Assembly: GCA_030427985.1 (NCBI GenBank)
Contig: JAUIBH010000007.1
Location: forward strand, 1 to 64,000
Reading direction: 5' to 3'
DNA length: 64,000 nt
From: Bacteroidia bacterium
GTDB taxonomy: Bacteria > Bacteroidota > Bacteroidia > Flavobacteriales > Flavobacteriaceae
Part shown: positions 4,708-54,388 of the stretch, in pieces
Position numbering within the stretch: the first letter of the stretch is position 1
How the letters are laid out: every line of letters starts with the position of its first letter
Position numbers and translations under genes: made by a program
The notes under the pieces: generated by a model
Database searches by the model: none
Told to the model about the DNA's origin: nothing
The model's input: the letters and a program-made list of their open reading frames with translations, nothing else

Positions 4708-6384
4708 ATGGAATTGAACAAGTTTAGCAAAACTGTGACCCAAGACTCTACGCTGCCTGCTGCACAAGCCATGTTGCACGCGTTAGGACTAACTGATGAA
4801 GATTTACAAAAACCCTTTATAGGAATTGCCAGCACTGGTTACGAGGGCAACCCCTGTAACATGCATTTGAACAAGTTGGCGCTCGATGTCAAAAAAGGAG
4901 CGGAGGCTTCCAACTTGGTCGGGCTTATTTTTAATACCATTGGCGTGAGTGATGGTATTTCCAACGGTACTCCCGGAATGCGATACTCGCTTCCCTCAAG
5001 GGATATTATTGCAGATTCCATGGAAACAGTGGTGCAGGCCATGAGCTATGATGGTCTTGTGACCGTTGTGGGATGCGATAAGAACATGCCCGGTGCCTTG
5101 ATGGCGCAATTGCGATTGAATCGCCCCTCCATTTTGGTCTATGGCGGAACCATTGCTCCCGGTTGCCACAAGGATAAAAAATTGGATATTATTTCCGCTT
5201 TTGAAGCCTACGGGCAACGTGTGGCCGGTACCATAGATGAAACGGAATTTAAGGAAGTGATTCACAAGGCATGTCCTGGAGCTGGGGCTTGTGGCGGAAT
5301 GTATACGGCCAATACCATGGCCTCTGCCATTGAAGCTATGGGGATGTCCTTGCCGTTTAACTCGTCCATCCCTGCTGTGAATGCCAAAAAAGGTGCGGAT
5401 TGCGAAGCTGCTGGTGAGGCCATGCTACACTTGTTGCGTGAAGATATTAAACCTCGGGATATTGTCACCAAGAAGTCCTTGGAGAATGCCTTCCGATTGG
5501 TGACGGTTCTTGGCGGTTCTACCAATGCGGTATTGCACTTTATGGCCATTGCCCATGCTGGTGATGTCGATTTCACTTTGGAGGACATCACTCGAATCAG
5601 TGAAACAACACCGTTGTTGGCTGATTTAAAACCCAGCGGAAAATATCTGATGGAAGACCTTCATAAAGTGGGCGGTGTTCCAGCGGTATTAAAATATATG
5701 TTGAAGGAAGGCATGTTGCACGGTGACTGCATGACCGTGACCGGAAAAACCTTGGCCGAAAACTTATTGGATGCCCCAGATTTGGCAGAAGGTCAAGATA
5801 TCATCCGAAAGAAAGACCAACCCATCAAAGAAACGGGTCACATCAGGATTCTGTATGGAAACTTGGCTACGGAAGGTGCCGTGGCAAAAATCACAGGAAA
5901 AGAAGGACTGGAGTTCACCGGAACTGCCCGAGTTTTTGATAGTGAAACAGCCGTCAACGAAGGTATTCATACGGGCAAAGTGCAAAAAGGAGATGTGGTG
6001 GTCATTCGCTACGAAGGACCAAAAGGTGCTCCAGGCATGCCCGAAATGCTGAAGCCTACATCTGCGATTATGGGTGCTGGTTTGGGTAAAGATGTCGCTC
6101 TGATTACCGACGGAAGATTTTCTGGCGGTTCCCACGGTTTTGTGGTAGGCCACGTTTCACCCGAAGCCCAAGTGGGTGGTGGTATTGCCTTGGTGAAAGA
6201 TGGTGATGAAATTACCATTGATGCGGTGAACAATACCATCAACATCAATATTTCAGACGAAGAGCTGGAACAACGAAGAAAAGAGTGGAAACAACCTGAG
6301 TTGAAGATAAAATCAGGAAGTCTATACAAATACGCAAAAATGGTATCATCAGCATCCAAAGGCTGTGTTACCGATATGATTTAA
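4708..6384 (+). CDS. ilvD: Dihydroxy-acid dehydratase
   Basis: IlvD dehydrates 2,3-dihydroxy-isovalerate and 2,3-dihydroxy-3-methylvalerate to the oxoacid precursors of valine and isoleucine. The Fe-S cluster cysteines are visible in [15 protein letters not shown] and [13 protein letters not shown]-type segments, and the C-terminal GRFSGGSHG motif is intact. The ATG at 4708 (MELNKFSK) gives the usual 558 residues. A TTG 18 bases upstream is in frame but less likely. It is the first structural gene of a tightly spaced operon (ilvD 52 bases from ilvB) behind an attenuator. Cytoplasmic. Confidence 0.95.
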
Positions 6385-41267: not shown

Positions 41268-43679
41268 TTATCTGAGTCTGGGATAGGAGTTGGGGTCTGC
41301 CTCATGCATGATCTCATACACTTTTTCAAAAATATCTTCGGCATTGGGCTTGGAAAAATAATCCCCATCCGAAGCGTAAGCCGGTCTGTGTGCTTTTGCA
41401 GTAAGGGTTTGTGGAGCACTGTCCAGGTAACGGTATCCTTTTTGGTTTTCAAGGATTTCCTGTAGCAAATAGGCGGAGCATCCTCCGGGAACATCCTCGT
41501 CCACAATCAAGAGCCGGTTGGTCTTTTTTAGACTTTTTACTACGTCATGGTCCAAATCAAAAGGCAAAAGGGACTGCGCATCAATCACTTCTGCATCAAT
41601 ACCTACTTCCAAAAGGTCTTGGGCTACCTTTTCTACAATTCGTAGTGTGGAACCATAGGAAAGCATGGTGATGTCCGAGCCCTCTTTTAATGTTTCCACC
41701 TTTCCAATAGGTGTGTAAAACGCTCCAAGATTGGCAGGTTTTTTCTCTTTAAGTCGATACCCGTTGAGGCTTTCTATGATTATGGCCGGTTCATCGCTTT
41801 TCATTAAAGTATTGTAGAAACCAGCCGCTTGAGTCATATTTCTGGGGGTCAAGATATACATGCCTCTCAATAGACTGATCAATCCAGCCATGGGCGACCC
41901 AGAATGCCAAATCCCCTCCAACCGATGGCCACGTGTACGAACAATAAGGGGCGCTTTTTGCTTCCCGACGGTTCGGTACATGAGGGAAGCCAAATCGTCA
42001 CTTAAGGTTTGAATGGTATAGAGGATATAATCCAAATATTGAATCTCAGCGATAGGGCGTAAACCTCTTAACGCAAGTCCAATGCCTTGTCCGATAATCG
42101 TGGTTTCGCGGATGCCAGTATCAGCCACACGCAGTTCGCCGTATTTTTTCTGAAGCCCTTCCAGGCCTTGGTTTACATCACCAATATTTCCTGTATCCTC
42201 GCCAAAGACCAAAGCTTCTGGATATTTGGAGAAAAGTGCATCAAAATTATCCCGAAGGATGATTCGTCCATCCACTTCTTCCAAATCCTCTGAATAGGTT
42301 GGTGAAACCGTCGCTACCTTTGTAGCTTTGTTGGGTAATTCACTATATAAATGAGAGCTATATTTTGGTTGTGTTGTGTTTAAAAAATTGTTGACCCACT
42401 GCTGAAGCTGTTGCTTTTCTGGGCTGGATTCTCCCAAGAGATAGCGCAATGCACTTCGGGATTTGGAGGCCAAATCCTTTTTTAGAGGTTCTTCAATGGC
42501 AATGAGGTCGTTCTTTATTTTTGTGATGAATGAGCGATTAGGACTTTTGCTGGCAACGTTGTCCAACAATTGCACAAGCTGCTTTTTAGCTTTAAGATGG
42601 GGCTTTAAGAACTCTGTCCAAGCCTCTTTTTTTGCTGAACGCACTTTGTGTTTGATTTCACGTTCCAATTTTTTAAGCTCTTCTTCTGTGCTGATGCCGT
42701 TTTCAAGAATCCATTCCCTGAACCGTTTGTTGCAGTCGTTTTCCCGTTCCCATTCCAACCGCTCCGGTGATTTATATCGTTCGTGGGAACCAGAAGTTGA
42801 ATGACCTTGTGGTTGAGTGAGCTCAGTAACGTGAATGAGTACGGGCACGTGGTTTTCCCGGGCAATATCGGAAGCATTTTCAAAAGCATGGATGAGTCCG
42901 GTATAATCCCAGCCATTGATTTTTAATAGCTCAAAGCCTTCTTTATCATCATCGCGCTGAAAACCTTTCAGAACTTCCGAAATGTCTCCTTTGGTGGTAT
43001 GGTATTTGGAAGGTACCGAAATCCCATAATCATCATCCCAAATGCAAATGACCATGGGAACTTGCATTACGCCGGCAGCGTTCAGGGCTTCAAAAAAATG
43101 TCCCTCGCTGGTGCTGGCATTTCCAATGGTGCCCCAAGCCACTTCATTTCCGTTGTTGGAAAAGTTGGTTTGATCTATACCTTTAACGTTTCTATATATT
43201 TTTGAGGCCTGTGCCAACCCAACCAATCGTGGCATTTGACCGGCAGTACAAGAAATATCGGCACTGCTGTTCTTTTGTTTGGTAAGGTCCTTCCATGAAC
43301 CGTCTTCATTCAAGCTATGGGTTACAAAATGCCCTCCCATTTGCCTTCCGGCACTCATGGGCTCCTTTTCAATATCAGTAGTAGCGTAGAGACCGTGAAA
43401 AAATTCTTTGGGATTTAGGTAGCCGAGGGCCATCATAAAGGTTTGGTCGCGATAGTAACCACTTCTAAAATCACCATCCTGAAAAGCTCTGGCCATGGCC
43501 AACTGTGGAAGCTCTTTTCCATCACCAAAAATCCCAAATTTTGCTTTCCCTGAAAGCACTTCGCGTCTGCCCATCAAACTACATTCCCGGCTAGTGACCG
43601 CAATCTCATAATCTTGAAGAATCTGTGATTGAAAATCTGAAAAGGAAATGTCGTGACTGGTACTTGGGTCAGGTTTCAT
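41268..43679 (-). CDS. Fused branched-chain 2-oxoacid dehydrogenase E1 (alpha+beta)
   Basis: 803 residues joining an E1-alpha-like half (about 1-400) and an E1-beta-like half (about 460-790, VFGEDTGNIGDVNQGLEGLQKKYG and QSLLPFDLDHDVVKSLKKTNRLLIVDED). This should decarboxylate branched-chain oxoacids in the BCKDH complex with E2 and E3 made elsewhere. The ThDP/Mg motif differs from textbook form. GDG reads G186-N187-A188 and the later NN pair reads D215-D216, so the usual acidic and amide ligands are exchanged; Tyr218 is kept. The helix-rich middle (residues 330-430) is longer than a simple linker. Monocistronic by position. Confidence 0.87.
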   Translation of the reverse strand: MKPDPSTSHDISFSDFQSQILQDYEIAVTSRECSLMGRREVLSGKAKFGIFGDGKELPQLAMARAFQDGDFRSGYYRDQTFMMALGYLNPKEFFHGLYATTDIEKEPMSAGRQMGGHFVTHSLNEDGSWKDLTKQKNSSADISCTAGQMPRLVGLAQASKIYRNVKGIDQTNFSNNGNEVAWGTIGNASTSEGHFFEALNAAGVMQVPMVICIWDDDYGISVPSKYHTTKGDISEVLKGFQRDDDKEGFELLKINGWDYTGLIHAFENASDIARENHVPVLIHVTELTQPQGHSTSGSHERYKSPERLEWERENDCNKRFREWILENGISTEEELKKLEREIKHKVRSAKKEAWTEFLKPHLKAKKQLVQLLDNVASKSPNRSFITKIKNDLIAIEEPLKKDLASKSRSALRYLLGESSPEKQQLQQWVNNFLNTTQPKYSSHLYSELPNKATKVATVSPTYSEDLEEVDGRIILRDNFDALFSKYPEALVFGEDTGNIGDVNQGLEGLQKKYGELRVADTGIRETTIIGQGIGLALRGLRPIAEIQYLDYILYTIQTLSDDLASLMYRTVGKQKAPLIVRTRGHRLEGIWHSGSPMAGLISLLRGMYILTPRNMTQAAGFYNTLMKSDEPAIIIESLNGYRLKEKKPANLGAFYTPIGKVETLKEGSDITMLSYGSTLRIVEKVAQDLLEVGIDAEVIDAQSLLPFDLDHDVVKSLKKTNRLLIVDEDVPGGCSAYLLQEILENQKGYRYLDSAPQTLTAKAHRPAYASDGDYFSKPNAEDIFEKVYEIMHEADPNSYPRLR

Positions 43680-50961: not shown

Positions 50962-51681
50962 CTAAGCTATTAATCTATAATTGGGCATTTGGTCATATGT
51001 GCGACCATTGAGCAAGCGCCCATTCTTTTTCTTATTAGTACCACCCCATTGCTTAAAGAAGAAGGCAACACCTGCTTCTTTACATTGACTTTGTATGTCA
51101 TTTACCCACTCGGCTTTTATGGGGCGTGGTTTCCTACCACTTTCTCCTCCAACGATAACCCATTTTATTTCATCCAGATTCAAGTCAGGTAAGGGACCTA
51201 TCAAAGGTTCTAGAGATAAAAACTTAATTCGGGCATTGGTTTTTCTTAAATAATTTATTCTATGCTGAACTTGTTGGTTTTCCACAGAAACACCCATCCA
51301 AATGTTTGGTGTCCAATTGAGCTTTTCATGGAGTTCTAGTAGTCTCTCATGTCTTTTGGTTAACACTTGAAAAATATGTTGTTGGTTATCGTTCATGACT
51401 TCAAAGACCCTTTGGATAAACGAGAGTGGAACCTCTGGGTGAAACAAATCACTCATAGAATTTACAAAGACCATTTTTGGTTTTTTCCAAGAATACGGAG
51501 TACTCAATTCTGACTCATGCACCCTAACTTCAAAATTATCCTTATATTTTTCTATTCCCATGGCCTGTAAACGTTTGGACATTACCTCGGCATAGCAGAA
51601 TTTACAACCTTGACTAATTTTGGTACAGCCAGTTGTTGGGTTCCATGTCATTTCTGTCCATTCGATGCTTGATTGCGCCAT
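50962..51681 (-). CDS. DUF5131 / phage Gp37-Gp68-like three-Cys-motif protein
   Basis: 239 residues. The N-terminal cysteines GCTKISQGCKFCYAE (C-x6-C-x2-C near residue 19) resemble a radical-SAM cluster motif and define the three-Cys motif of this family. TWNPTTGC, the MSDLFH segment and IVGGESGRKPRP are other family marks. Its partner TcmP precedes it by 3 bases on the same strand, which is the usual pairing. Homologues occur in phages and accessory regions; the reaction is unknown. Start ATG at 51681. Confidence 0.88.
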   Translation of the reverse strand: MAQSSIEWTEMTWNPTTGCTKISQGCKFCYAEVMSKRLQAMGIEKYKDNFEVRVHESELSTPYSWKKPKMVFVNSMSDLFHPEVPLSFIQRVFEVMNDNQQHIFQVLTKRHERLLELHEKLNWTPNIWMGVSVENQQVQHRINYLRKTNARIKFLSLEPLIGPLPDLNLDEIKWVIVGGESGRKPRPIKAEWVNDIQSQCKEAGVAFFFKQWGGTNKKKNGRLLNGRTYDQMPNYRLIA

Positions 51682-51684
51682 GAC

Positions 51685-52533
51685 CTATTTGTTGTTATAC
51701 TTGTTTGTTATTTCATTAGCGATTTTCACCGCATTTTTATTGTTTGAAACCATAAAGAAATGAAACATTATGGAATTAGAGCTATTCTTTAATACATATG
51801 GTTCTGTTACATATTTAAACAGCTCACTTAATCTATTCATATAGAGTTCCGCTGATTTTTCAACAGCCCTTTCTGTTTTCGTAGTAACTTTTTCTTCTCC
51901 AAATAGCGTAAACACATCCGTTTGATTGTAAAAATTGTTCAAAATATCTAAACGACTCATGCCAAGAAAAGTTTCTAATTTTTTAATCCACGACTCAGAA
52001 ATTTTACCATCTTTTTTTAATAATCGATTAACGCCCATTCCTGTCGGCACCAAAATCCACGCATCCACATTAGACTCTTTTAAAGAGGTCAGAGAGTTCC
52101 AGTTTAATTGCATGCCACACGGATCTATGTAAGCCAAAATCTTCCAATTCTTTCCTTTTGGTGATTTTAAAAATCGCCCCATAGAAGAAATTTTGGCATT
52201 ACAATCTTCATTTACAACATATACTTTTTTATTTATGGATGAGATTGAACCTTTTAACTCTTGAGCATTGTGGGTGTCTTTTTCAACAAAATAATATTCA
52301 TCGAAAGAACGGGGTTCATCTATGGCCAAAATACGCTTAGCTGCTCCAAGAATTACTTTCTTATTTTCATTACTCCCCTTCGTAATATAACCACTACCAG
52401 CAAAGCCATCAAAATAGAGAAGATTCCAACCAAATCTATTTGCATATTTATTCATAATAATCAAGTATGCACTAGCATACTCGACTAAAATTTCAATTTT
52501 TGCATCTGTCCATTTGCCCCCAAATTCATTCAT
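51685..52533 (-). CDS. tcmP: Three-Cys-motif partner protein
   Basis: 282 residues of the TcmP family: an N-terminal WTDAKIEILVEYASAYLIIM segment, YFDGFAGSGY (a methyltransferase-like glycine loop), IDPCGMQLNW and a helical C-terminus. The Rossmann-like motif suggests SAM binding, but the family has no known reaction. It is translated just ahead of the DUF5131 gene. The DNA here is visibly AT-richer than the flanks (for example 16 G/C in 51721-51780), as expected of a horizontally acquired pair. Confidence 0.88.
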   Translation of the reverse strand: MNEFGGKWTDAKIEILVEYASAYLIIMNKYANRFGWNLLYFDGFAGSGYITKGSNENKKVILGAAKRILAIDEPRSFDEYYFVEKDTHNAQELKGSISSINKKVYVVNEDCNAKISSMGRFLKSPKGKNWKILAYIDPCGMQLNWNSLTSLKESNVDAWILVPTGMGVNRLLKKDGKISESWIKKLETFLGMSRLDILNNFYNQTDVFTLFGEEKVTTKTERAVEKSAELYMNRLSELFKYVTEPYVLKNSSNSIMFHFFMVSNNKNAVKIANEITNKYNNK

Positions 52534-52675: not shown

Positions 52676-52697
52676 ACCCTTCGACTTCGCTCAGGGT
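52676..52697. repeat. REP-like hairpin, copy 3
   Basis: Arms ACCCT and AGGGT flank TCGACTTCGCTC, the reverse complement of a core differing by one base from copies 1 and 2. It lies in the 214-base gap between tcmP and the DUF4130 gene. The rest of this gap (52534-52747) is AT-rich with no gene. Confidence 0.78.
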
Positions 52698-52747: not shown

Positions 52748-53500
52748 CTAACTCACCTTTTTTTCTGAAAGATACTTCCAATGCCGCTTGGGCACATGTT
52801 GCGTATGCAATTTGGGATTGATACGGGATTTAATGTTGGTGCTTTTAACGTAATCGTATTCCTCGGGTTTAAAAACATCGTTTTTAACAGTTTTGTTGTG
52901 GTGGATGTCATTTAAGTTTAGAGATACCATTTCAACATGGTCCAGATTGTAAAAGATGCCATATTTCCGTTTAACATCATAAATCAACCATTGTTGGTCG
53001 GCGTAGCGGTCCCGAAAATGTTTGGAAATTAAAGGCAATACATCAAAATCAGGTTCGATATTGGCAAAATAAATGTCATCCTTGGTCAATTGAAACCGAA
53101 CAAAAGCTTCCATTCGGTGTTTTTCACGCCCAACCTTTTTGGCCAATTGGCTAATGTGTAGCACAATCCCATCTGAATAATCCAATTGCTTTCCACTTTT
53201 AGTGGCCATCAACTTTTGAATGTAGGTGTATAGCATCAATTCCACCCCTTCAGTTTCGCTCAAAAAGGCAAAATAGACATTGGCAATGGCATTATGACTC
53301 TTGTTACGGATACCGTTCCAGACGCGCTTGGCTTTTTCAACGTGGGTGAAGATGGTTTCGGTTTCAGAAAACAGACCGTTTTGGCATTCGCTGTTCTTTT
53401 GGATATCGGCCACATTGATTTTTTCATCAAAAGCGACAAAGATGGCGGTTAGGAAACCATTAAAACTACCGTCATAAATTAAGGTTGTTGAAGGATTCAT
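52748..53500 (-). CDS. DUF4130 / TIGR03915-family DNA-metabolism protein
   Basis: 250 residues. The ATG at 53500 (MNPSTTLIYDGSFNGFLTAIF) is chosen over an upstream TTG at 53551, which lies next to operator 1. The YDGSFxGFLTA start, the SHNAIANVYFAFLSETEG middle and RFRDRYADQQWLIYD-like KHFRDRYADQQWLIYD identify the family, which is usually paired with a radical-SAM protein (TIGR03916) or fused to a uracil-DNA-glycosylase-like domain. No such partner is adjacent here. Four operators lie in its promoter region, shared with the XRE-S24 gene. A damage-inducible repair role is inferred. Confidence 0.85.
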   Translation of the reverse strand: MNPSTTLIYDGSFNGFLTAIFVAFDEKINVADIQKNSECQNGLFSETETIFTHVEKAKRVWNGIRNKSHNAIANVYFAFLSETEGVELMLYTYIQKLMATKSGKQLDYSDGIVLHISQLAKKVGREKHRMEAFVRFQLTKDDIYFANIEPDFDVLPLISKHFRDRYADQQWLIYDVKRKYGIFYNLDHVEMVSLNLNDIHHNKTVKNDVFKPEEYDYVKSTNIKSRINPKLHTQHVPKRHWKYLSEKKVS

Positions 53501-53532: not shown

Positions 53533-53611
53533 TTGGAAATATTCCAATCAAAGATATGGAAATATTCCTAATAATGGAAATAATCCAAAATTATTATTGG
53601 AAATAATCCAA
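53533..53611. promoter_or_regulatory. Four palindromic operators between DUF4130 and XRE-S24 genes
   Basis: 15-base sites: TTGGAAATATTCCAA (53533-53547), ATGGAAATATTCCTA (53556-53570), ATGGAAATAATCCAA (53574-53588), TTGGAAATAATCCAA (53597-53611). Start-to-start spacing is 23, 18 and 23 bases. Site 1 is a perfect TTGGAA-N3-TTCCAA palindrome. Site 4 overlaps the -33 TTG of the XRE-S24 promoter. The obvious candidate to bind is the XRE-S24 protein itself. Confidence 0.85.
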
Positions 53612-53625
53612 ATTGTATATATTTG
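53597..53625 (+). promoter_or_regulatory. Promoter of the XRE-S24 gene
   Basis: TTG at 53597-53599, 18 bases of spacer, then TATATTTG at 53618-53625: both elements and their spacing fit the Bacteroidota consensus. The expected transcription start falls at about 53630, on or next to the GTG start codon, so the mRNA would be leaderless or nearly so. Operator 4 covers the -33 element. Confidence 0.75.
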
Positions 53626-53629
53626 AAAT

Positions 53630-54388
53630 GTGGAAAATGAAATTACTTTAAAGCGTTTTATAGAGATTCGAAGGGAATTGGGCTATACCCAAACCGAGTT
53701 TGCCCAATTATTGGGGGTGAAGAACACCACTGCCGATATTGAACGCGGTCGGACCAAATTATCGGGAAAAGTGGTGGAAGAATTGTTGAAACAGTTCAAA
53801 ATAAATCCGCTTTGGCTTTTTGGCGATAGTGACCAGAAACATTTGGATACTTCAAAAACCAGTGTTATTCCAAAAGTGGTGACTGTGGATAGCACCAATC
53901 AAGACAATATGGTCTTAGTGAATGCAAAAGCGGCCGCAGGGTATCCACAGAACATTGCTGATACAAGCTGGTACCAACAACTCCCCGCTTTTGATATGCC
54001 TATTCCAGAGTTGCGAAACGCTACTTATCGTGGTTTTCAGGTGGAAGGGGATAGTATGTTGCCCAATTTAAAGCCCAACGATTGGGTGTTGGCCCGCGCC
54101 ATTGAGCACATTGATCATGTGAGCCCCAACAAAATGTATGTGGTGGTGCTTCAAGACTCCGTTATGGTGAAAAAAATTGAGCGAAGGCCTAATTCCAACA
54201 ACATTACCTTGGTTTCCTTGAACGAAACCTATCCTCCTTATGACATTAAACCCTTTCAGATTCAAGAAATTTGGGAGGTAAGCAGCAAACTTACCTTTAA
54301 TGTAGATGCCACCACCGAAACTGGTTTGTTAAAACAATTGCAGCAATCCATGGAAGAGTTAAAAAAGCAAATGGGTCAAATGAAATAG
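53630..54388 (+). CDS. LexA-like XRE-family regulator with S24 peptidase domain
   Basis: 252 residues starting at GTG 53630; no in-frame ATG lies nearby. An N-terminal HTH (about residues 8-62, RRELGYTQTEFAQLLGVKNTTADIERG) is joined to a C-terminal LexA/UmuD-type S24 domain. Ser142 in VEGDSMLP and Lys181 in VMVKKIERR form the catalytic pair, and KAAAGYP (Ala103-Gly104) looks like a self-cleavage site. It ends in a helical Gln-rich tail. It probably represses itself and the DUF4130 gene through the four operators and is inactivated by self-cleavage after DNA damage; this is inference from the domains and sites. Confidence 0.87.
   Translation: MENEITLKRFIEIRRELGYTQTEFAQLLGVKNTTADIERGRTKLSGKVVEELLKQFKINPLWLFGDSDQKHLDTSKTSVIPKVVTVDSTNQDNMVLVNAKAAAGYPQNIADTSWYQQLPAFDMPIPELRNATYRGFQVEGDSMLPNLKPNDWVLARAIEHIDHVSPNKMYVVVLQDSVMVKKIERRPNSNNITLVSLNETYPPYDIKPFQIQEIWEVSSKLTFNVDATTETGLLKQLQQSMEELKKQMGQMK

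What the first reader, a model, noticed from the sequence alone, without database searches (positions are those of the whole stretch)
53533..53638. Four phased operators for a self-regulating LexA-like XRE-S24 switch
Four near-identical 15-base palindromes (TTGGAA-N3-TTCCAA type), spaced 23, 18 and 23 bases, fill the gap between the DUF4130 gene and the XRE-S24 gene. One overlaps the promoter -33 element. The regulator has an Ala-Gly site and the Ser/Lys pair for self-cleavage. This looks like a compact DNA-damage switch distinct from classical LexA boxes.
Basis: partly seen in the sequence, partly recalled or inferred. Interest (0 to 1): 0.75.

Follow-up and report, generated by a model that had tools for sequence, protein, structure and literature searches.

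The report
Flavobacterial LexA-type operator array
Four repressor-binding sites sit between a DNA-repair gene and the gene of a self-cleaving repressor that matches the already published DNA-damage (SOS) master switch of marine Flavobacteria; the finding is real and known in kind, and what looks new is how precisely the four sites are arranged and conserved.

Summary
Confirmed: four 15-base boxes (53533, 53556, 53574, 53597; spacing 23-18-23) lie between TIGR03915/DUF4130 and an HTH_3 + S24 regulator; 0 of 100 shuffles gave four matches. Their core, GGA-N5-TCC, is the experimentally tested box of the 'non-canonical LexA' that runs the SOS response in Flavobacteriaceae (PMC8565304). The regulator has Ala103-Gly104 and Ser142/Lys181. 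Paired boxes also precede dinB-dnaE/SRAP and a PA0069-type radical SAM gene elsewhere in this genome. So this looks like the SOS master repressor and its own operator, not a new compact switch. Not seen in the parts of that paper I read: the array is a stereotyped bidirectional operator. Of 81 loci, 43 have four boxes and 36 have boxes 2-4 at near-fixed spacing. TAnnTTTG (-7) follows box 4 by 21 bases in 65 of 66 exact arrays, and a divergent -7 lies between boxes 1 and 2 in 65 of 66. The divergent gene is usually the radical SAM TIGR03916, missing here. Binding and damage response are inferred for this organism.

The parts
53533..53547 (+). Box 1, TTGGAAATATTCCAA; lies over the predicted start region of the divergent TIGR03915 transcript
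   Evidence: 23-base spacing to box 2 in each of the 43 four-box arrays among 81 loci
53556..53570 (+). Box 2, ATGGAAATATTCCTA; its first base is shared with the divergent -7 element
53574..53588 (+). Box 3, ATGGAAATAATCCAA
53597..53611 (+). Box 4, TTGGAAATAATCCAA; its TTG (53597-53599) is the candidate -33 element of the lexA-like gene
   Evidence: TAnnTTTG starts 21 bases after the first base of box 4 in 65 of 66 exact arrays
53618..53625 (+). Predicted -7 element TATATTTG (TAnnTTTG) of the regulator gene
   Evidence: Bacteroidetes -7 consensus as quoted in a passage of PMC7366714
53549..53556 (-). Predicted divergent -7 element TATCTTTG for TIGR03915 (no TTG found at -33)
   Evidence: TAnnTTTG at this place in 65 of 66 exact arrays, with the nn positions varying
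53630..54388 (+). Non-canonical LexA-type repressor, HTH_3 + peptidase S24, 252 aa, GTG start 4 nt after the -7 element (predicted leaderless or nearly so)
53936..53941 (+). Codons of the predicted scissile bond Ala103-Gly104
   Evidence: invariant in 29 aligned proteins
54053..54055 (+). Codon of predicted catalytic Ser142
   Evidence: invariant in 29 aligned proteins
54170..54172 (+). Codon of predicted catalytic Lys181
   Evidence: invariant in 29 aligned proteins
52748..53500 (-). TIGR03915 putative DNA repair protein (DUF4130), divergent gene; here without its usual radical SAM neighbour TIGR03916

Best explanation
This is the gene of the Flavobacteriaceae-type non-canonical LexA (GGA-N5-TCC group) together with its autoregulatory operator, which is shared with a divergent DNA-repair gene. 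Dimers of the CI-like repressor bind the four boxes. Box 4 blocks the -33 region of the repressor's own promoter; boxes 1 and 2 flank and cover the -7/start region of the divergent promoter, so both genes are held down together. After DNA damage, RecA filaments trigger self-cleavage at Ala103-Gly104 by Ser142/Lys181, dimers are lost, and both genes (and the dinB-dnaE/SRAP and radical SAM genes elsewhere that carry the same boxes) are expressed; resynthesised repressor closes the circuit. Shown here: boxes, spacing, conservation, both -7 elements, active-site residues, other boxed SOS-type genes. Shown by others for a GGA-group protein (PMC8565304): box binding by EMSA and mitomycin C induction. 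Inferred: binding, cleavage and induction in this organism, and the role of each box.
For: Domains HTH_3 and S24; A-G, S, K invariant in 29 aligned proteins; a low-confidence model whose best PDB matches by E-value are full-length lambda repressor and LexA; GGA-N5-TCC is the published box. Of 61 homologs at 40% identity or more, 59 have at least 2 boxes within 300 nt upstream and 54 at least 3 (letter-shuffled mean 0.03 boxes); of 19 more distant S24 homologs none has a box. Arrays in 81 loci: 43 four-box, 36 three-box, 1 with boxes 1, 2 and 4, 1 with none. In the 40 exact four-box arrays the inner bases are 92% conserved, spacers 84%, left flank 71%, downstream 63%; the dyads are 100% by construction. 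Both -7 elements in place in 65 of 66 arrays. Own genome: paired boxes at dinB-dnaE/SRAP and a PA0069 radical SAM gene. The Pfam S24 search of the own genome found 2 proteins, this one and a UmuD.
Against: No experiment in this organism. The published reference protein WP_075324850.1 was not fetched, so direct clustering with it was not tested. The genome is 88.9% complete in 188 contigs, so the regulon is partial. The divergent promoter has no TTG at -33. Some box or pair sites have no obvious SOS target: own-genome C70 next to a recombinase, C174 inside what reads as a valyl-tRNA synthetase gene, one-mismatch sites L024-L034; C23 and C86 not examined; in relatives 3 of the 16 pair regions I fetched (L310, L315, L316) showed no gene I recognised as SOS. 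uvrA in the same window has no exact box near it. recA and other classical SOS promoters were not checked.
Confidence: 0.88

Rival explanations
1. The operators control only the regulator gene; the divergent TIGR03915 gene is a bystander with its own unregulated promoter.
For: No TTG at -33 on the divergent side (sequence). Loci with only boxes 2-4 keep a divergent repair gene, so box 1 is not tied to it.
Against: A divergent TAnnTTTG sits between boxes 1 and 2 in 65 of 66 exact arrays. In G143, where TIGR03916 lies about 96 kb from the lexA-like gene, it still carries paired boxes (the next ORF there resembles TIGR03915 but was not searched). The 2021 paper predicts a COG1573-COG4277 pair as regulon member; that this is the TIGR03915/TIGR03916 pair is recalled, not tested.
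Confidence: 0.08
2. A prophage or element CI-type repressor with a lambda-like multi-operator switch that governs a nearby lysis or transfer module.
For: CI-like N-terminal domain; 23-bp operator spacing resembles lambda OR (recalled); the TcmP-DUF5131 pair behind TIGR03915 comes and goes between relatives.
Against: The neighbours searched are UvrA, TIGR03915, TcmP and DUF5131, and the further ORFs of 80 aa or more at 47-60 kb read as metabolic genes (the last by eye). A match to the regulator is in 33 of 35 other genus genomes, in the same setting, often with UvrA in the fetched flank. Same boxes at SOS genes.
Confidence: 0.02
3. An autoregulated S24 repressor of this family that senses something other than DNA damage in this lineage.
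For: No induction data for this species; recA was not examined here, and recA of S. agarivorans was not induced by mitomycin C.
Against: Boxed partners are a DinB-type polymerase with DnaE, and SRAP; active-site residues intact; the published GGA-group regulator gene is mitomycin C inducible.
Confidence: 0.02

Closest known systems
Non-canonical LexA of Bacteroidetes, GGA-N5-TCC group (Sanchez-Osuna et al. 2021, PMC8565304; S. agarivorans WP_075324850.1)
   Same: HTH_3 + S24 domains, Ala-Gly and Ser/Lys, GGA-N5-TCC boxes in its own promoter, boxed translesion polymerase, SRAP and radical SAM genes, Flavobacteriaceae
   Different: Four-box 23-18-23 array shared with a divergent repair gene; the sections read say only that two or more motif instances occur in several promoters, and the terms array and cooperat do not occur in the main text. 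Supplementary tables were not read. The radical SAM neighbour gene is missing here.
Canonical LexA (E. coli; motif and details recalled)
   Same: S24 self-cleaving SOS repressor logic and autoregulation
   Different: No LexA DNA-binding domain (PF01726) among the Pfam hits; different box
Lambda CI and OR/OL (operator details recalled)
   Same: CI-like N-terminal domain (3bdn is the best PDB match by E-value), several operators at about 23 bp, divergent promoters
   Different: Chromosomal regulator beside repair genes, near-identical boxes; whether a small Cro-like gene exists was not tested (one search lists only ORFs of 80 aa or more)
Francisella FddR, and UmuDAb and HdiR as S24 SOS regulators (passages of PMC13148647; PMC8565304)
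   Same: S24 regulators other than LexA taking over SOS control
   Different: FddR is reported to fall with lambdoid repressors, apart from the Bacteroidetes regulators

Membership tests
Non-canonical LexA of Bacteroidetes, GGA-N5-TCC group | N-terminal HTH_3 (PF01381) plus C-terminal peptidase S24 (PF00717) | tested here: met
   PF01381 1e-08, PF00717 7.7e-14, both above gathering score
Non-canonical LexA of Bacteroidetes, GGA-N5-TCC group | Scissile Ala-Gly and Ser-Lys dyad | tested here: met
   A103, G104, S142, K181 invariant in 29 sequences
Non-canonical LexA of Bacteroidetes, GGA-N5-TCC group | GGA-N5-TCC boxes in its own promoter | tested here: met
   59 of 61 closer homologs with at least 2 boxes in 300 nt, 0 of 19 distant ones with any
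Non-canonical LexA of Bacteroidetes, GGA-N5-TCC group | Boxes at translesion polymerase and other SOS genes | tested here: met
   dinB-dnaE/SRAP and PA0069 radical SAM in the own genome; umuC (L301) and TIGR03916 (L314) in relatives, further dinB- and PA0069-like ORFs by eye
Non-canonical LexA of Bacteroidetes, GGA-N5-TCC group | CI-like helical N-terminal domain and extra C-terminal helix | tested here: inconclusive
   five N-terminal helices and helix 230-251 modelled, but mean pLDDT 65, about 60 in the C-terminal helix; best PDB match lambda repressor (E 8e-06) with TM-score only 0.29 over the query
Non-canonical LexA of Bacteroidetes, GGA-N5-TCC group | Clusters with WP_075324850.1 rather than the CTAA-N5-TTAG group | not tested
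   Reference sequences not fetched; a tree of 62 close (window included) and 19 distant homologs separates the two sets (support 0.868), but none of the distant set showed the exact CTAA-N5-TTAG motif
Non-canonical LexA of Bacteroidetes, GGA-N5-TCC group | Specific binding and mitomycin C induction | not testable with these tools
   bench work; shown for a GGA-group protein by others
Canonical LexA | LexA DNA-binding domain PF01726 | tested here: not met
   one search reports only Peptidase_S24, HTH_3 and HTH_19 (the last below its cut-off); the NCBIfam lexA model is not among the hits
Prophage CI repressor module | Embedded in a phage or element genome | tested here: not met
   searched neighbours are UvrA, TIGR03915, TcmP, DUF5131; same setting in relatives

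The most novel reading that the evidence does not exclude
The array is a higher-order operator evolved for this CI-derived LexA: two 23-bp pairs of dimers placed symmetrically (23-18-23) across back-to-back promoters, giving cooperative, all-or-none control of the repressor and of a divergent DNA-repair gene, while other regulon genes use 19-bp pairs. Within it, the radical SAM partner TIGR03916 has been lost repeatedly, leaving DUF4130 alone under the same operator, which would mean DUF4130 can act on its own. Neither cooperativity nor the number of losses was tested.
Probability: 0.3. Interest if true: 0.5.

Novelty: new member of a known kind. Interest (0 to 1): 0.33.

Why it matters
The SOS regulator of Bacteroidetes was reported only in 2021 (PMC8565304). 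A fixed, multi-box, bidirectional operator kept across many species gives a ready test system for how a phage-type repressor dimer, without the LexA wing, reads closely spaced boxes and sets SOS timing. Loci that keep TIGR03915 without the TIGR03916 neighbour are natural knock-outs for asking what DUF4130 does.

Tried and rejected
A two-mismatch 13-base pattern over the genome was too loose to define a regulon (975 forward matches against 560 for the reversed pattern), as was the 15-base one (107 and 114 against 40 and 45); the paired-box pattern was far cleaner (own genome 8 forward and 7 reverse, reversed pattern 0 and 0). I expected loss of box 1 to go with loss of the divergent repair gene; it does not: three-box loci keep that gene and carry a GTA-N5-TCC relic 19 bp from box 2 (consensus). 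I expected CTAA-N5-TTAG boxes upstream of the distant homologs; none of the 20 loci scanned (19 distant, 1 close) had the exact motif and 4 had a one-off version. The solved-structure sequence search gave one hit, a designed DNA-binding protein. The one-mismatch sites L024-L034 showed no gene that I recognised as SOS in the listing. Left undone: recA, ssb and uvr promoters in the own genome; supplementary tables of PMC8565304; sites C23:10017 and C86:14469; a count of TIGR03916 losses on a tree.

Full report
What is there. The 129-base gap between TIGR03915/DUF4130 (52748-53500, minus) and an HTH_3 + S24 gene (53630-54388, plus, GTG start) holds four 15-base boxes at 53533, 53556, 53574 and 53597, spaced 23, 18 and 23. 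With up to one mismatch the box pattern occurs four times in the 64-kb window, all here; the expectation is 0.23 and none of 100 dinucleotide shuffles reaches four. The bare dyad GGA-N5-TCC is common (25 against 16.9 expected), so it is the full box and the clustering that carry the signal.

What it is. PMC8565304 (abstract, sections 12, 13, 14, 15 and 18, and passages) describes 'non-canonical LexA' proteins of Bacteroidetes: CI-like HTH plus S24 domain, in two groups with GGA-N5-TCC or CTAA-N5-TTAG boxes, the first found primarily in Flavobacteriaceae. A GGA-group protein bound its box in EMSA, needing both dyads and the spacer length, and genes predicted as targets were induced by mitomycin C, recA excepted in S. 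agarivorans. The window's boxes are GGA-N5-TCC, its regulator has both domains, and Ala103-Gly104, Ser142 and Lys181 are invariant in 29 aligned proteins. The AlphaFold2 model is of low confidence (mean pLDDT 65); its best PDB match by E-value is full-length lambda repressor (8e-06, TM-score 0.29 over the query), followed by LexA structures. The nearest named relatives are labelled Muricauda, Flagellimonas and Allomuricauda (98% for the two closest).

Specificity control. Of the two exceptions, L128 has two boxes further up (-368 and -345) and L143 has one. Of 19 more distant S24 homologs none has a box. In the family sample 186 of 249 genomes have some match to the protein, close or distant. 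Of the 35 other genus genomes, 33 have a match.

Regulon. In the own genome a pattern of two boxes 5-13 bases apart gives 8 forward and 7 reverse matches, the reversed pattern none. These are seven places: the array itself; C170:39709 between dinB (followed by a DnaE-type polymerase gene) and SRAP; C161:15876 directly upstream of a PA0069 family radical SAM gene; C170:15938 before an ORF with only the first part of an IMS domain, which looks like a broken dinB; C174:6231 inside what reads as a valyl-tRNA synthetase gene (by eye); C23:10017 and C86:14469, not examined. From relatives I fetched 16 pair regions, chosen from the list for A+T-rich boxes (L301-L316). By profile search one is umuC followed by a umuD-like ORF (L301) and one TIGR03916 (L314); by eye eleven more are dinB-type or PA0069-type genes; three (L310, L315, L316) showed nothing that I recognised as SOS. 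The three SOS-type pairs of the own genome outside the array are 19 bp apart, unlike the 23/18 of the lexA array. The Pfam S24 search found two proteins in the own genome, this one and UmuD. The uvrA gene in the window has no exact box near it.

The array as a bidirectional operator. Over the window and the 80 named loci, 40 of 81 have exactly 23-18-23, two have 23-18-22 and one 23-17-23; 27 have 18-23 and nine 18-22 (boxes 2-4); one (L195) keeps boxes 1, 2 and 4, and one (L217) has none. The distance from box 4 to the start codon varies from 30 to 174 bases in the same set, so the array is held while its surroundings move. In the 40 exact four-box arrays the dyad bases are 100% conserved by construction, the inner bases 92%, spacers 84%, left flank 71%, downstream 63%. 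In 66 non-identical exact arrays (40 four-box, 26 three-box) TAnnTTTG follows box 4 in all 66 and at exactly 21 bases in 65; on the other strand TAnnTTTG sits at the edge of box 2 in 65 of 66, with only the nn positions varying. These loci are related to one another, so the counts are not independent events. [quoted passage not shown] So box 4 covers the -33 of the regulator gene and the divergent -7 is wedged between boxes 1 and 2.

Leader. In 34 of the 80 loci tabulated the start codon lies 3 or 4 bases after the -7 element, as in the window (4), so the message would start within a base or two of the start codon if the element is centred at -7 (inference). In 25 of the 80 the leader is 61-147 bases, and several of these hold TGTCA..CTCGA-type repeat pieces.

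Divergent gene. In 64 of 80 named loci TIGR03916 is found in the fetched flank, in 62 starting within 400 bases of the regulator on the divergent side; of the 16 without it, 15 have TIGR03915 itself next to the array and one has neither. L167 has TIGR03916 and L168 does not, though both repressors are 98% identical to the window's. In the genus sample 32 of 40 genomes have TIGR03916 (31 above cut-off); the eight without are the window's genome (88.9% complete), G029 (71%) and G001, G005, G026, G031, G032 and G034 (about 99% each). Several losses are the simplest reading, but some lone TIGR03915 copies are only 43-49% identical to the window's and could be replacements.

Mechanism. Best reading: repressor dimers on four boxes silence both promoters; RecA-triggered self-cleavage frees both and the wider regulon. 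The CI-like domain and the 23-bp pairs suggest cooperative binding, but nothing here tests cooperativity. Literature: the multi-box geometry was not seen in the sections of PMC8565304 that I read, which say only that two or more instances occur in several promoters, and 'array' and 'cooperat' do not occur in its main text; its supplementary Table S5 was not read. Searches listed no other paper whose title or abstract start is about this group.

Verdict. Real, well conserved, and a new member of a known kind; the array geometry and the missing radical SAM partner are modest additions.

Noticed in passing
G000:C70:5027-5041 and 5605-5619 (L001); also G017, G018, G229: Two exact TTGGAAATATTCCAA boxes 578-579 bp apart: one directly after tRNA-Asp (the tRNA is not found by ARAGORN in G018's locus), one inside a tyrosine recombinase gene with 10-base perfect arms GATCTTGGAA/TTCCAAGATC. 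The tRNA-side box is in 8 of 40 genus genomes, the in-gene palindrome in 6 of 40. Could be recombinase sites or borrowed LexA boxes.
   Followed up: partly
window 52748-53500: TIGR03915/DUF4130 stands alone here: its radical SAM neighbour TIGR03916 was not found in this genome assembly or in six relatives about 99% complete.
   Followed up: partly
window 50962-52533: A DUF5131 + three-Cys-motif partner (TcmP) pair lies behind TIGR03915; within the fetched 4-kb flanks TcmP is in 3 and DUF5131 in 4 of 80 named loci.
   Followed up: no
named loci L168-L224 between the -7 element and the start codon; window about 52677-52696: Several relatives carry TGTCA..CTCGA-type repeat pieces in the repressor's 5' leader; the window has a similar-looking piece, CCCTTCGACTTCGCTCAGGG, between TIGR03915 and TcmP.
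   Followed up: no
G000:C170:15938-15968 (L298): A box pair in front of an ORF that matches only the first half of the IMS domain, apparently a broken second dinB.
   Followed up: no
window 42023-42033: A lone GGATATAATCC outside the array.
   Followed up: no
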